Virus record (IMG/VR): IMGVR_UViG_3300045117_000110
Span: 1 to 21,727 of that record
Reading direction: 5' to 3' (one strand)
Length of the DNA: 21,727 bases
DNA from: a virus
Positions within the stretch are counted from its first letter, which is position 1. Every line of letters starts with the position of its first letter. The notes beneath the pieces were generated by a model. The model did no database searches and was not told where the DNA came from. It was given only the letters and a program-made list of their open reading frames with translations. The translations under genes were made by a program, and so were the position numbers. Below, in pieces: positions 501 through 19,749 of the stretch.

Positions 501-1622
501 ATGGAACCTTTTGAGTTTAATAGATTCATACAAATTAGTAAGGTTGACCCCGATCAGCATATGGTATATGGCTATGCTTCTACTCCCCAATTAGACTCAC
601 AGGGGGAAAAAGTGGACTTGGAAGCGTTAGAACGCGCTTTGCCAGAATATCTAAAGTTTCCGACTATCAGAGAAATGCATCAGCCAAAGGCTATTGGAAC
701 TACCAAGTCTACATCTATAAAAGACGAGGGTTTATATATCGGTGCCAAAATAGTTGATAAAGATGCTTGGGAGAAGGTAAAGGAAGGCGTATATCGTGGG
801 TTTAGTATTGGTGGAAAAATTGTTAATAAAGTTAAAGACACCATTACCGACTTAAGACTTAGTGAAATTAGTTTAGTAGATGTTCCAGCCAATCGTGGGG
901 CGGTAATAACGCTTTATAAAGCTAGTGAGGATACTTTAGAAGCGTCCTTTCATAGGATGATGAAACGAGAGGAGGTGAGGTTTGAAGTGGAAAAAGGAAG
1001 AAAAAGCAAAGTAGTCGAAGAGAACGTGGTAGAGCCGGTAGCGGCTGTTGCTGAAGAGGCTAAAGTTACTCCCGAAACTCCTGAAGTGGTTACAGAACCA
1101 GTTGAAGCACCAGTTGTGGAAACACCAACTGAAGCGCCAGCTGAAGCACCTGTTGAGACACCCGTAGAAACGCCAGTGGAAACACCGGTAGTTGAAGCGC
1201 CTGTTGAGACGCCTGCGGAACCTGTAGCCGAACCTGCCGCTAGCGCGGAGGTTAAGGAGGTAGCGGAGAGGACTTTAGACCTCGAAAAACGTTTAGACAA
1301 ATTAAGTGGAAAAGTAGAAGAAAGCGCTAGCATCGCTAAAGCAATGACACTCTTAGGTAAAGTAGTTTCTACTTTAGAGAAACTAGAGGAAAGATTGTCA
1401 AAGGTGGAAGCAACGCCAGCGGCGACTAAGACAAAAGCGTCTTTTCTAGTTGGCAAAACTCTCGGCGGAGACGATGGCGCTGATAAGGATGCGTTATCGA
1501 AAGCTAAGTCCGAGCTGGATGCGCTAGTCAAGATCCGTGAGCAAGACCCTGATAGGTACGCTCGCGAAGGCATGAGTACAAAGGCTCTTGATTTATTGGC
1601 ATTAGTTAAGAAACTTAGTTAA
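501..1622 (+). CDS. Prohead serine protease (XkdF-like) fused to a scaffold-like C-terminal domain
   Basis: 373 residues. Residues 1-150 look like the XkdF/prohead protease family, which matures the capsid by cutting scaffold and capsid precursors. Candidate catalytic residues are His60 (REMHQPKAIG), Ser102 (YRGFSIGGK) and an acidic residue in SEISLVDVPAN (Glu122 or Asp127). Residues about 165-250 are a low-complexity linker rich in Glu, Ala, Pro, Val and Thr (repeats of VETPVETP type). Residues about 255-373 are helical and coiled-coil-like, as in scaffolding proteins. An in-frame GTG at 987 (codon 163) follows an internal ribosome site, GAGGAGGTGAGG, which would make a separate scaffold-only product, as phage lambda C/Nu3 does. 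The family assignment is by motif and position directly before the capsid gene. Confidence 0.85.
   Translation: MEPFEFNRFIQISKVDPDQHMVYGYASTPQLDSQGEKVDLEALERALPEYLKFPTIREMHQPKAIGTTKSTSIKDEGLYIGAKIVDKDAWEKVKEGVYRGFSIGGKIVNKVKDTITDLRLSEISLVDVPANRGAVITLYKASEDTLEASFHRMMKREEVRFEVEKGRKSKVVEENVVEPVAAVAEEAKVTPETPEVVTEPVEAPVVETPTEAPAEAPVETPVETPVETPVVEAPVETPAEPVAEPAASAEVKEVAERTLDLEKRLDKLSGKVEESASIAKAMTLLGKVVSTLEKLEERLSKVEATPAATKTKASFLVGKTLGGDDGADKDALSKAKSELDALVKIREQDPDRYAREGMSTKALDLLALVKKLS
969..989 (+). promoter_or_regulatory. Internal ribosome binding site and GTG start for a scaffold-only product
   Basis: A strong AGAGGAGGTGA lies inside the protease gene. The in-frame GTG at 987-989 sits about 11 bases after GGAGG, exactly at the junction between the protease domain and the low-complexity/coiled-coil half. 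The spacing is somewhat long. A 211-residue product would result. Confidence 0.5.
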
Positions 1623-4628: not shown

Positions 4629-5609
4629 ATGTCAGTAGAAATTGGACGTCAAGGATATTTAGGATTTGCATTAGAAAGTGTAGCGGGGACGGCGGAGTCT
4701 GCCCCATCAGTGTTCCTACCTTTTACCGAGTGTAGTTTAGAAACTAAGCACGAGAAATTTAGTGATATTTCCGTTCGTGCTTCTAGGGTTAAAGATCACG
4801 ACTCCGTGAGTGGTAAGAAGTGGGGAGAGGGCGACGTGTCCCTATACTTAGATGCTACTAATTCTGGATATTTGATCAAACTAGCTTTCGGTAATGAGTC
4901 TAAAGCCGACTATCAAGCTAGCCCAAACGTTGACAATCACCAATTTTACATTACTACTTCTGGTAACGCGGCTAAGACGGCTACTATCTGGGAATATCAG
5001 GGAAGTGGTCCAACAGTACAACGATATGTTCGGACGGCTGCTAACAACCTAGAAATTGAGGTAGGAAATGAGGGGTTAGCAACGCTAAAAACTAGCTTAA
5101 TGGGTAGCGATTCAACAGGCGTAACTGCTCCAAGTTTAACTACAACTTCGGGGACTATCTTCGCTTGGACTGCAGCTACTGTAAGTTTTGGTGATACTGT
5201 CGAAGCGGCTCGCATAGCGAGCGCAACCAAAGTAACTAACTTTAAATTTACGCTTAATAATAACCTAGAAATGGTTTACGAGTTCAATTCCGCGACCGTT
5301 TCTCAAGTTTTATTGGGTGAGGCGGAAGTAACTGGCTCGTACACGTTATTTTTTGAAAATGACACGGAGCTAAGCGCTTATAAAAATAACACTAAGCGAG
5401 CAATGGTTATGACCTTAACAGGCGCCTCGGTTGGCGCGGCTACGGAGCAGTTAGAGATTTGTATCGATAGGATGTTCTTAGAGGATAAAAGCATAGATAC
5501 TGGCGCTAGTAACTTCTTCGCCATTACTGGTAACTACCGAGTTATTCAAGGAACAAATGGCGGATTTGTGACAGTAAACTTGCGTAATGCTAAGACTAGT
5601 GTGTATTAA
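4629..5609 (+). CDS. Major tail (tube) protein
   Basis: 326 residues with a very strong ribosome site (AAGGAGGTGAAAAC-ATG). The N-terminus has a long loop (GFALESVAGTAESAPSVFLPF), followed by beta-rich sequence (KWGEGDVSLYLDATNSGYLIKLAFG), as in the phage tail tube superfamily. It stacks as rings around the tape measure protein. The strong ribosome site fits a high-copy structural protein. A 10-bp hairpin follows the stop, separating it from the chaperone gene. Confidence 0.8.
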   Translation: MSVEIGRQGYLGFALESVAGTAESAPSVFLPFTECSLETKHEKFSDISVRASRVKDHDSVSGKKWGEGDVSLYLDATNSGYLIKLAFGNESKADYQASPNVDNHQFYITTSGNAAKTATIWEYQGSGPTVQRYVRTAANNLEIEVGNEGLATLKTSLMGSDSTGVTAPSLTTTSGTIFAWTAATVSFGDTVEAARIASATKVTNFKFTLNNNLEMVYEFNSATVSQVLLGEAEVTGSYTLFFENDTELSAYKNNTKRAMVMTLTGASVGAATEQLEICIDRMFLEDKSIDTGASNFFAITGNYRVIQGTNGGFVTVNLRNAKTSVY

Positions 5610-5616
5610 TAGTTAG

Positions 5617-5648
5617 TGGGGGTTAGTTTGCTGTAGTTCTAGCCCCCA
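5617..5648 (+). terminator. Stem-loop after the tail tube gene
   Basis: TGGGGGTTAG (5617-5626) pairs with CTAGCCCCCA (5639-5648), 10 bp including one G-U pair, with a 12-base loop. No U-run follows on the + strand, so it may attenuate or process rather than terminate. It matches the expected drop from abundant tail tube message to low-level chaperone message. Confidence 0.55.
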
Positions 5649-5664
5649 TTAACAAAAACTACTT

Positions 5665-6015
5665 ATGGATAATAAAAATATATTTAACTACCGGAAAGAA
5701 GTCTACCCCGAGGATAATGAACTATGGGTAGAACTCTATGACGACCTCTCTATTGGACAATGGGAGAGGATACTAGCAAAGATTGGAGACTTGAAGGACT
5801 CCGCTGATGCTAGGAAAAGCATGGAGGTAGCTTTGGATGTTCTGGCGGGGAGTATTAAAGATTGGAACTTTGCCGACAGTAACGGCGAGAAATTAGTAGT
5901 TAACGAAGATAATATTAAGCGCCTTCCCTCCAAGTTAGCCACTTGGTTGGTGACATTAGCAAACGACTTCTTCGTTAATAGGGATAGTAAAAAAAAAGAA
6001 TCGCCAAGCAGCTAA
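5665..6015 (+). CDS. Tail assembly chaperone, short (G-type) product
   Basis: 116 residues, ending SPSS at a TAA (6013-6015). It lies between the tail tube and tape measure genes, the invariant place of the tail assembly chaperones that hold the tape measure during tail polymerisation. It carries a run of nine A bases just before its end, with a stem-loop 7 bases later, allowing a -1 shift into a 66-codon extension. The start at 5665 has no clear ribosome site and lies 16 bases after a stem-loop. The frameshifted partner makes the assignment firm even though the sequence itself is not distinctive. Confidence 0.85.
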   Translation: MDNKNIFNYRKEVYPEDNELWVELYDDLSIGQWERILAKIGDLKDSADARKSMEVALDVLAGSIKDWNFADSNGEKLVVNEDNIKRLPSKLATWLVTLANDFFVNRDSKKKESPSS

Positions 6016-10803: not shown

Positions 10804-11096
10804 GCGTAAACGATGCTATTTATGGAGCGGCGACAACCGGATTCTTCTTTAACGGTTTTATTCATTTACTCTTAGCTGTATCTTATATTCGTGGCTACCT
10901 AAAGAACAAAGGCACCTGGCCGATATTCTGGCTATCAGCGGTTTGGGCCTCCTCGACGGTGATGTTACTTTCTTGCGCTATCTTGTATAGCTTTAGAGTG
11001 TTTAATGCGCCGTTTGAAATAGTAGTGGTTTTGTGCAATACTCTAGTAGCAATTGCTTCACTAGGACTGTTAAGAGTTACAGTTAGCAATTGTTGA
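10800..11096 (+). CDS. Three-segment membrane protein, possible holin
   Basis: 98 residues with three hydrophobic segments: near residues 8-30 (GFFFNGFIHLLLAVSYI), 40-65 (IFWLSAVWASSTVMLLSCAI) and 73-94 (IVVVLCNTLVAIASLGLLRV). It overlaps the previous gene by ATGA and precedes the endolysin gene, so a holin is a reasonable guess. Its last 14 bases overlap the tail of the convergent HNH gene. A second small hydrophobic protein follows the endolysin at 12438, so which one is the holin is unresolved. Confidence 0.6.
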   Translation: MSVNDAIYGAATTGFFFNGFIHLLLAVSYIRGYLKNKGTWPIFWLSAVWASSTVMLLSCAILYSFRVFNAPFEIVVVLCNTLVAIASLGLLRVTVSNC

Positions 11097-11589
11097 AAGT
11101 ATGCGTTTGCTTGGAATGGCCAGTGTGTGGCCGATGAATAACAACGTGTTCTGCTCTGCTGACAACAACAAGGTTTTCAATTCTATTATCGAGGCCGTTT
11201 CCGTTTATGTGGTGTACTATCTCCGTTGGTTTCAGGTATCTACCAAGTTTCTTTTCCATTACAAGTCTATGCTCTGCAACCTTATTGTGTCTAGCGTATG
11301 GATGTGTTGGTTGGTAAATAAAAATGTGCCCATTATGAATAACAAGTCCTGTTTTCCAGCTTGGATGCTTTTCTGGATGTTTGGAAATATATCTAAAATG
11401 GCATTTGCGGGAACAGAAAGAAAGTTTTCCAAGGTTATGGCTTTTGTAGCGGAAAAACTGTTTACCACAGTTAGCACAGTTAAAAACGCCTTTTCTAGAC
11501 ACGTCGTAACAACTACGACCACAAAACCTGGCCTTTTGAGATGGCGGAGCATTAAATTCTATTCCACACAACTCGCACTTATATAACAC
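11083..11589 (-). CDS. Free-standing HNH homing endonuclease with zinc fingers
   Basis: 168 residues on the strand opposite to the surrounding late genes. Two Cys4-type zinc modules lie at the N-terminus (Cys5/8/23/27 and Cys38/41/59/63). Then comes an HNH core of the HNH_3 kind: EHRLVMEKKLGR (His107), VHHINGNGLDNRIENL (His126, His127, Asn129, Asn131) and His148. It cuts DNA and usually spreads itself into related genomes. The GTG start sits just 6 bases after a strong promoter, so the message appears leaderless; no ribosome site is seen. It separates a membrane protein gene from the endolysin and overlaps the former by 14 bases. It may be related to the group I intron 1.8 kb away. Confidence 0.9.
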   Translation of the reverse strand: MLYKCELCGIEFNAPPSQKARFCGRSCYDVSRKGVFNCANCGKQFFRYKSHNLGKLSFCSRKCHFRYISKHPEKHPSWKTGLVIHNGHIFIYQPTHPYARHNKVAEHRLVMEKKLGRYLKPTEIVHHINGNGLDNRIENLVVVSRAEHVVIHRPHTGHSKQTHTFNNC

Positions 11590-12741: not shown

Positions 12742-13828
12742 ATGACAAAGAAAAACGTGCTTGAGGGGTCTTCTCTTCACGCACTGTTAGCAGAAGTGAG
12801 AGCTCGTGGCTACTTCTCTTTCAAGCAACCGTTGAGGCAAGGGTCGAAGATTGTCGTTGATACCTCTCGGTGGGGTGGCGATAGTTTTTCCTTCGCCGTT
12901 GTTAGCGACACCCACTGCGGGTCGCTGTACTTTCAACGGACAGCTTTGGAAGAGTTTTACTCTGTGGCAGGGGACAGGGGTATTCAGCTAATTCTCCACG
13001 CTGGAGACCTCTGTGACGGCACAAGCTCCATGCACGCCGGAATGGAGTTTGAACTAGCGGTCCACGGGGCAGACCAAATGGTTGCGTATGCCAAAGACAT
13101 CTACCCCTACCGTCGGGGAATTGTCACGAAGGTTATCAGTGGTAATCACGACGCCGCATTTTGGAAAGAGTCTGGAACAAACATCGTCCAACGTATCTGT
13201 GACCAACGTCGCGATATGGAGTACTTGGGCGACACCCTTGCTTTCGTCCAAATTGGTGCTATCCGAATTGCGCTAATGCACGGAAGTGGGAATGTGGCTT
13301 ATGCTCGAAGCTATCGGTTACAGAAAATTATCGAGCAACTAGCTCCTGAGAATAAGCCGAACTTTCTGTTCCTCGGACATAAAATTAAATGTGTCCTTAC
13401 CTAGTAATAGGTAATAAAAAACCTTACTATATCGGTGGAACTCCTTAAAGGACAATACCGAGGCAACCTGCGAAAGCAGAGAGCCCGTAACGACTAAATG
13501 TAAGGCTCTGTACTTTGACAGAAGAAGCTACAGATGAAGTTATAGTCTGGTCTGTACGGTAACGTATAGAGGTGGCAGAAATGACCACCCGCCCTTGTGG
13601 TTATAAAGTAACAGTACGTACCACGTGCCGGCAACAATTCCAGGATACCGCAATGTCGAGGGGATCCAAATGCCGTGCTTTCAGGCCCAGACTCCTTTCC
13701 TGGCCAGCAAGGGGTTGTTTCCGTTTATCGCCGGGATAATTGTAACCGTTACTCCTGACGAGAACGGGTTAGCGTCCGTCAATTACGAATGGGTGCCGTT
13801 TTACAAAGTTCGTAAACGAGACATTTGA
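12742..13828 (+). CDS. Metallophosphoesterase, split by a group I intron
   Basis: Two exons, 12742-13380 and 13619-13828, join to give 282 residues. Calcineurin-type phosphoesterase motifs are in order: SDTH (Asp56, His58), HAGD (Asp89), GNHD (Asn135, His136), LMHG (His180) and GHYH (Gly212-His215). The last motif exists only after splicing: exon 1 ends after His213 and exon 2 resumes at Tyr214-His215. Unspliced reading stops 8 codons into the intron. It hydrolyses phosphodiester or phosphomonoester bonds with two metals; the target is unknown. The ribosome site GGGAGGTAGGG precedes the ATG. Base and codon use (more Leu CTG/CTC, Ile ATC, Arg CGT) differs from the structural genes, suggesting a different origin. 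Confidence 0.9.
13381..13618 (+). ncRNA. Group I self-splicing intron (238 nt, no internal ORF)
   Basis: Exon 1 ends in GGACAT and the guide GTGTCC (13391-13396) pairs with it, giving the conserved U-G wobble at the 5' splice site. The intron ends in G (13618). Expected helices are all present. P2 is 13397-13403 with 13408-13414, GUAA loop. P3 is CCTTAC 13422-13427 with GTAAGG 13500-13505. P4-like is TCGGT/ACCGA. P5-like is TCCT/AGGA. P6 is CTGC-GAAA-GCAG. P7 is GACTA 13492-13496 with TAGTC 13543-13547. P8-like is TCTG/CAGA. P9 helices are capped by GTAA and by GGTGG/CCACC. No endonuclease gene lies inside. Confidence 0.93.
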
Positions 13829-14294: not shown

Positions 14295-14322
14295 CCCTAA
14301 TTCTTTCAAGACTTGGGGCTAT
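14291..14322. terminator. Bidirectional terminator at the late/early convergence
   Basis: ATAGCCC (14291-14297) pairs with GGGCTAT (14316-14322). A T-rich run (ACTTTTTG) follows on the + strand, and a run of T follows on the - strand. The stop codon of the + membrane protein lies in one arm, and the stop of the - strand HNH gene lies in the loop. This is a very compact meeting point of two opposing operons. Confidence 0.8.
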
Positions 14323-14653
14323 ACTTTTTGATAACTTCTTTAATAAATAACTCCGTACACTTCCCCGACATATCTTTAAATTGCCTTAAATAGGCCCACC
14401 TTTTAGGAAACTTCTCTTGGAACCACATCATTCCTTTAGCTGGGTCGTGGTGCATTAGTCGCCAATGGCAGGACCAACATAAGCAAACGGCGTTGTTTTT
14501 GTCCCACCTAAGTAATGTGTGTCTTCGGCTTAGAATATGAGCGCAATTTAAGTTATCTTTAGACTTACAAATTAAACAATGTCCGTCTCGCTTTCGGATA
14601 TGAGAGCTAAAAAGAATATCGGCTTTTTTCTTTAATTTACTTTTTTCTTTCAT
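14306..14653 (-). CDS. NinG-like HNH zinc protein
   Basis: 115 residues. A basic N-terminal helix is followed by a CxxC pair (Cys26, Cys29), CAH (Cys37, His39), SRRHTLLRWDKNNAVCLCWSC and HWRLMHHDP, the layout of lambda NinG and related HNH nucleases with treble-clef zinc sites. NinG-type proteins act in phage recombination; a homing role is the other possibility. Its start overlaps the end of the upstream small zinc protein by 17 bases, so the two are probably translated together. It is the last gene of the - strand unit. Confidence 0.75.
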   Translation of the reverse strand: MKEKSKLKKKADILFSSHIRKRDGHCLICKSKDNLNCAHILSRRHTLLRWDKNNAVCLCWSCHWRLMHHDPAKGMMWFQEKFPKRWAYLRQFKDMSGKCTELFIKEVIKKYSPKS

Positions 14654-19687: not shown

Positions 19688-19693
19688 AGTTGA

Positions 19694-19749
19694 TGGAGGT
19701 GGCGAGAATCGGACTCGCGTCCTAAGGTTAGTCAAATCCGTTCACCCCC
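19694..19749 (-). ncRNA. tmRNA acceptor-domain-like RNA (no mRNA part)
   Basis: Read on the - strand, GGGGGTG (19743-19749) pairs with CACCTCC at the 3' end (19695-19701), 7 bp including one G-U, followed by an A at 19694. After the first strand comes AACGGATTTGAC, close to the tmRNA signature CGGATTCGAC. The 3' half has GGAC, a 5-bp T-arm (GCGAG/CTCGC) and loop TCCGATT, close to tmRNA's TTCGATT. Only about eight bases (TAACCTTA) stand where tmRNA has its whole message part. No CCA is encoded (TCA follows). A promoter lies about 85 bases upstream. Confidence 0.65.

What the first reader, a model, noticed from the sequence alone, without database searches (positions are those of the whole stretch)
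13381..13618. Group I intron splits the catalytic GHxH motif of a phage metallophosphoesterase
Joining bases 13380 and 13619 restores LGHYHVPA, the metal-binding motif, exactly. The intron has a guide sequence pairing with GGACAT including the conserved U-G at the splice site, ends in G, and shows helices P2, P3, P7 and P9. At 238 nt with no internal nuclease it is close to minimal. Group I introns often sit in the most conserved part of an essential gene; metallophosphoesterase is, to my knowledge, not a usual host gene, which suggests that this enzyme matters to the phage.
Basis: partly seen in the sequence, partly recalled or inferred. Interest (0 to 1): 0.75.

Follow-up and report, generated by a model that had tools for sequence, protein, structure and literature searches.

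The report
Small self-splicing intron splits phage phosphoesterase
A 238-base self-splicing RNA (a group I intron without its own nuclease) interrupts a phage phosphoesterase gene inside its metal-binding site; it belongs to a family of small introns that sit in several different phage genes, so the intron is real and its kind is known, but this host gene appears to be new.

Summary
Rfam RF00028 hits 13371-13569 (66.7 bits, E 3.5e-15). Excising 13381-13618 restores GHYH and a 282-aa calcineurin-like phosphoesterase with all metal ligands; 24 distant relatives carry the motif uninterrupted.

These introns are small (about 200-250 nt) and ORF-less, in major tail protein, major head protein and other genes. 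Mycobacteriophage BAKA's 265-nt tail-gene intron, whose splicing was shown by RT-PCR (Pope 2013), aligns with them. A covariance model built from 14 relatives without the window finds it end to end, beginning exactly at 13381 (150.7 bits). The 3' end GUAACAG-NNN-G also matches. Guide and exon covary between sites, so one intron lineage has been retargeted.

The UAA of the L2 GUAA loop is in frame with the 5' exon at all 8 P2-bearing insertion sites; in the window it is the middle of three tandem in-frame stops. This fits the known rule that a stop keeps ribosomes out of the intron core.

Verdict: a well-supported group I intron in an apparently unreported host gene. Splicing was not tested experimentally, and the enzyme's importance to the phage is not shown.

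The parts
12742..13380 (+). 5' exon of the metallophosphoesterase gene (213 codons, ends in GGA CAT = Gly-His)
13381..13618 (+). group I intron, 238 nt, no ORF; last base G13618
   Evidence: RF00028; family model R1 starts at 13381; reading frame
13619..13828 (+). 3' exon (TAC CAC = Tyr-His, then 67 codons and the stop)
13375..13396 (+). P1: exon GGACAU with guide GUGUCC (13391-13396), U.G at the splice site
13397..13414 (+). P2 hairpin UUACCUA-GUAA-UAGGUAA
13402..13410 (+). three tandem stops UAG UAA UAG in frame with the 5' exon; the middle UAA belongs to the L2 GUAA loop
13422..13505 (+). P3 (13422-13427 with 13500-13505), enclosing P4, P5, P6 and P6a (13432-13485)
13492..13547 (+). P7 (13492-13496 with 13543-13547), the expected guanosine site
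   Evidence: conserved, no variation
13507..13534 (+). P8 (13507-13512 with 13529-13534)
13551..13570 (+). P9 hairpin, eight pairs with a GUAA loop
13571..13589 (+). P9.1 hairpin with the family's conserved CAGAAAUG tip
11083..11589 (-). free-standing HNH endonuclease gene, antisense to the late genes; possible but unproven helper in intron movement
   Evidence: PF13392; 29% identical to an HNH inside a group I intron in L102

Best explanation
13381-13618 is an ORF-less group I intron, most likely active. The RNA folds into P1-P9.1, binds a guanosine at P7, is cut after U13380 and joins U13380 to U13619, so making the mRNA of a 282-aa metallophosphoesterase whose GH-YH metal site is otherwise broken (the unspliced reading ends ...GHKIKCVLT and lacks His215). 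It belongs to a phage intron family found at nine or more positions in several genes, each time with a guide matching the local exon. In unspliced mRNA a ribosome coming from the 5' exon meets in-frame stops in P2/L2 and halts before the core, which should let the core fold. Shown: sequence, structure, homology, junction, frame. Inferred: splicing in the cell, the ribosome role, the route of spread.
For: RF00028 E 3.5e-15. Independent family model without the window: 150.7 bits, E 1e-40, full length, starts at 13381. Covariation: 39 of 64 pairs change on both sides, 0 of 500 shuffles as good, slid controls far lower. Exact restoration of GHYH; relatives uninterrupted with the nine metal-ligand positions kept. 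Guide/exon covariation between sites. Natural uninterrupted versions confirm the junction rule at two family sites. BAKA intron, RT-PCR-proven, aligns along its length. L2 UAA in frame in 62 of 62 P2-bearing relatives, in BAKA and in the window.
Against: No RNA evidence for this phage. No close uninterrupted relative of this very gene (best 40% identity). P10 looks weak: the P1 loop AAAAUUAAAU offers about two pairs to the 3' exon UACC. P2 and P8 differ from the family's usual sequence.
Confidence: 0.93

Rival explanations
1. A decayed group I intron: the fold is still visible but splicing is lost, leaving a truncated 220-aa protein or a pseudogene.
For: The unspliced 220-aa reading still matches Pfam Metallophos (42.8 bits). 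P10 looks weak.
Against: Core, P1, P7 and both splice sites are intact and the 3' exon is open to a normal end. The truncated form lacks His215, kept in all relatives that reach it.
Confidence: 0.05
2. The intron is as described, but it moves by trans homing: the free-standing HNH enzyme of this phage (11083-11589) cuts uninterrupted alleles and the intron is copied in by repair.
For: The HNH is related to one encoded inside a group I intron of another phage. Homing helped by free-standing nucleases has been reported in T4 (reference list of PMC3073962).
Against: The gene is 1.8 kb away and antisense; no homologue was found in the other contigs of the intron family held here. Allelic homing alone does not explain new sites with changed guides.
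Confidence: 0.25
3. The intron reached this gene by reverse splicing into an unrelated mRNA through its guide, followed by reverse transcription and recombination.
For: Same core with different guides at unrelated genes; none of the core-matched members contains a nuclease.
Against: No reverse transcriptase was seen in the window's ORFs. The guide here (GUGUCC) differs from the family's common GCCC, so a direct donor is not identified.
Confidence: 0.35
4. Not an intron: a programmed frameshift, a recoding element or an assembly error.
For: None found.
Against: In-frame stops and the group I fold; the insert is a homologue of 65 other introns.
Confidence: 0.01

Closest known systems
Mycobacteriophage BAKA/Optimus tail-gene intron, 265 nt, ORF-less (Pope et al. 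2013, PMC3706429)
   Same: Alignable over its length (about 60% identical to the window intron), GUAA loop in L2 and CAGAAAUG in P9.1 shared, no nuclease, phase 0, L2 UAA in frame. Splicing shown by RT-PCR in that paper.
   Different: Host gene is a minor tail protein; longer P8; different guide.
ORF-less introns in major tail and major head protein genes of IMG/VR phages (65 contigs found here)
   Same: P4-P6 core matches the window exactly at the pattern's fixed positions; same layout and 3' end.
   Different: Guides mostly GCCC against GGGU exons; P2 and P8 sequences differ from the window's.
Group I introns of T4, SPO1, Twort and Bastille-type phages
   Same: Same ribozyme class and splice-site rules; group I introns generally have an in-frame stop soon after the 5' splice site (PMC3073962).
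   Different: Mostly in nucleotide or DNA metabolism genes (PMC11878797) and often with a homing endonuclease; this one is in a metallophosphoesterase and has none.

Membership tests
Group I catalytic intron (RF00028) | Covariance model score over the curated threshold | tested here: met
   66.7 bits against 50
Group I catalytic intron (RF00028) | P1 with exon, U.G at the 5' splice site | tested here: met
   GGACAU/GUGUCC
Group I catalytic intron (RF00028) | P3-P7 pseudoknotted core with P4-P6 and P8 | tested here: met
   P7 and P4 invariant, P3 and P8 covary
Group I catalytic intron (RF00028) | Terminal G at the 3' splice site | tested here: met
   G13618, in register with the relatives' GUAACAG-NNN-G
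Group I catalytic intron (RF00028) | Guanosine-initiated splicing | not testable with these tools
   needs RNA
Group I structural subgroup (IA, IB, IC) | Subgroup-specific peripheral elements | tested here: inconclusive
   No P7.1/P7.2 insertion between P7 and P3, which speaks against IA; no subgroup models were available
BAKA-type ORF-less phage intron family | Full-length match to a model built from the other members | tested here: met
   150.7 bits, positions 1-236 of 236
BAKA-type ORF-less phage intron family | L2 GUAA loop with UAA in frame with the 5' exon | tested here: met
   +24 in the window
Mobile intron with its own homing endonuclease | Endonuclease ORF inside the intron | tested here: not met
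   238 nt, no ORF
Calcineurin-like metallophosphoesterase (PF00149/PF12850) | Pfam score and metal ligands DxH, GD, GNHD, H, GHxH | tested here: met
   only the spliced form has both histidines of GHxH

The most novel reading that the evidence does not exclude
One lineage of nuclease-free group I introns spreads among unrelated phage genes with rewritten guides (reverse splicing or helper nucleases) and carries a built-in stop: the UAA of its L2 loop has to be in frame with the exon. P2-bearing members would then be limited to matching reading phases and to P1-loop lengths in steps of three, with the ribosome parked over P1-P2 as part of the splicing mechanism.
Probability: 0.25. Interest if true: 0.65.

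Novelty: new member of a known kind. Interest (0 to 1): 0.4.

Why it matters
It adds a host gene (metallophosphoesterase) to a list dominated by nucleotide and DNA metabolism and a few virion genes, and it ties scattered phage introns into one lineage whose guide was rewritten at each site. That gives a natural data set for two open questions: how nuclease-free group I introns reach new genes, and whether a stop codon placed in L2 couples splicing to translation.

Tried and rejected
A single-protein scan of viral contigs found nothing because the patterns picked were not the conserved ones; an alignment with a haloarchaeal virus homologue solved this. A tandem copy in L025 whose match stops at residue 212 looked like a second intron, but it is an uninterrupted fusion with a degenerate first copy and no group I hit. 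The 15-nt pattern CGACTAAATGTAAGG gave only chance matches. Weak RF00028 hits in two relatives (L027, L028) are far below threshold. Plasmids gave no gene match and one weak intron match. A PDB sequence search gave no metallophosphoesterase, only weak unrelated hits. No phosphoesterase relative was found in the other intron-bearing contigs. The paper by Sandegren and Sjoberg on translation-dependent splicing is not held, so the review PMC3073962 was used.

Full report
Observation. The window is a 21.7-kb IMG/VR virus record with SU10-type capsid, tail tube, tape measure and CHAP endolysin genes. At 13381-13618 Rfam's group I intron model matches with 66.7 bits, E 3.5e-15. Joining 13380 to 13619 gives LFLGHYHVPA in phase 0; of thirteen shifted junctions only the stated one restores GHYH. 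The spliced 282-aa protein matches Metallophos_2 and Metallophos in Pfam and phrog_7339, a 'DNA repair exonuclease' family.

Uninterrupted relatives. Twenty-two viral contigs, a Bacillales MAG and the haloarchaeal virus BLv36 encode relatives at 28-40% identity that align across the junction without interruption. All keep the nine metal-ligand positions, both histidines of GHxH included. None of their records has a group I intron over threshold, and the family model finds none in their loci. The intron is therefore best read as an insertion in this lineage; the unspliced reading, ending ...GHKIKCVLT, lacks His215.

Structure. Pairings read from the sequence: P1 13375-13380/13391-13396 with the U.G at the splice site; P2 13397-13414; P3 13422-13427/13500-13505; P4, P5, P6 and P6a within 13432-13485; P7 13492-13496/13543-13547; P8 13507-13512/13529-13534; P9 13551-13570; P9.1 13571-13589. 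On an 18-sequence alignment made by sequence alone (MAFFT), 39 of 64 pairs change on both sides in at least one member and 86.5% of cells pair; 0 of 500 shuffles reach this, and sliding the partners gives 27-42%. The structure was read from the window sequence, which favours it somewhat over the slid versions. P7 and P4 do not vary, so for them there is conservation but no covariation; P9.2 is weak.

A family of introns. A scan with a P3'/P7 pattern led to introns sharing stretches of the P4-P6 core at 94-98% identity. A pattern from that core found 65 contigs. All are small and ORF-less. Their host genes, from joined reading frames and PHROGs, are: major tail protein (49 contigs, TAMG^D); a phrog_13692 gene of unknown function at ITG^NLTV, YMG^IQWPV and one further site in L063; major head protein at PAG^TDS and RTISG^YENV; two unassigned genes in L155/L166 and L197; and the window's phosphoesterase. 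Uninterrupted sequence confirms the predicted junction at two sites: L063 reads DYMGIQWPV and L159 reads RTISGYENV. A covariance model built from 14 members without the window finds it over the full model length, starting exactly at 13381, with 150.7 bits. Its last few bases are out of register there; the 3' end rests on the reading frame and on GUAACAG-NNN-G in the relatives.

Retargeting. Guide and exon change together: CAGGU/GCCUG in L177, CGGGU/GCCCG in L178, CCGGU/GCCGG in L159, GGGU/GCCC in the tail genes, GGACAU/GUGUCC in the window. The same core with a rewritten guide in unrelated genes means that copies have moved and adapted. The route is not shown. No core-matched member contains a nuclease. 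The window has a free-standing HNH gene related to an HNH encoded inside a group I intron in L102, which leaves trans homing open; reverse splicing is the other route.

Stop codon in L2. In 62 of 62 P2-bearing relatives the UAA of the L2 GUAA loop is in frame with the 5' exon. So it is in BAKA (+30), in the second L063 intron and in the window (+24), where UAG stops flank it on both sides. Offsets from the splice site are 24, 27, 30 or 33. That makes eight distinct P2-bearing sites; the three introns without a recognisable P2 (L155, L166, L197) are in another phase. At one chance in three per site the agreement has a probability near 1 in 6500. But sites may share a preference for GGU glycine codons, and those in one gene may not be independent, so this is suggestive only. 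That group I introns have an in-frame stop just after the 5' splice site, and that translation of the upstream exon helps splicing, is established (PMC3073962). A fixed position of the stop in the L2 loop across insertion sites was not described in the papers I read.

Known or new. The closest member with experimental support is the BAKA/Optimus tail-gene intron (Pope 2013, PMC3706429), spliced in infected cells and alignable with the family. Phage introns in virion genes are thus known. Searches for group I introns hosted by a metallophosphoesterase gene found none, and a 2025 study says that most split phage genes serve nucleotide and DNA metabolism (PMC11878797). Only open-licence papers were searched. 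Hence: new member of a known kind, in an apparently new host gene.

Limits. No RNA data; a single metagenomic contig; host unknown; subgroup not assigned; the pattern scan counts only exact core matches, so the family is probably larger than 65 contigs. Importance of the phosphoesterase to the phage was not tested.

Noticed in passing
window 19691-19749, - strand: A 59-nt tmRNA-like element (RF00023, 55.6 bits, over threshold) holds both ends of tmRNA, that is the acceptor and T-arm domain, with four bases in place of the whole tag-coding part; ARAGORN does not call it and an exact-pattern scan of viral contigs found no second copy. It also overlaps an ORF. Could be an att-site relic or a headless tmRNA.
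   Followed up: partly
L008, L012, L017, L020, L021, L023, about 5001-5690: Phosphoesterase relatives in these viral contigs read UGA in frame many times, in several cases at the conserved glycine of GHxH, as expected for genetic code 25 (UGA = Gly) phages.
   Followed up: partly
IMGVR_UViG_3300050821_006485 (G030) and IMGVR_UViG_3300020579_000008 (G029; L155, L228): Two related phage records hold five and four group I introns at RF00028 level, three of them within about 1.4 kb.
   Followed up: partly
L063 519-756 and 913-1149, - strand: Two family introns in one gene, separated by a mid exon of about 160 nt.
   Followed up: partly
window 14306-14653, - strand: Small antisense HNH-like ORF related to NinG/Rap junction endonucleases (phrog_5034), 0.5 kb downstream of the phosphoesterase gene.
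   Followed up: no
L025 3651-5816: A Bacillales MAG encodes a 721-aa protein made of two phosphoesterase domains, the first apparently degenerate in its metal ligands.
   Followed up: partly
window 501-1619 and 4629-5606: The window's head and tail tube proteins are distantly related to those in the contigs whose phrog_13692 gene carries the same intron family, so donor and recipient phages may be kin.
   Followed up: partly
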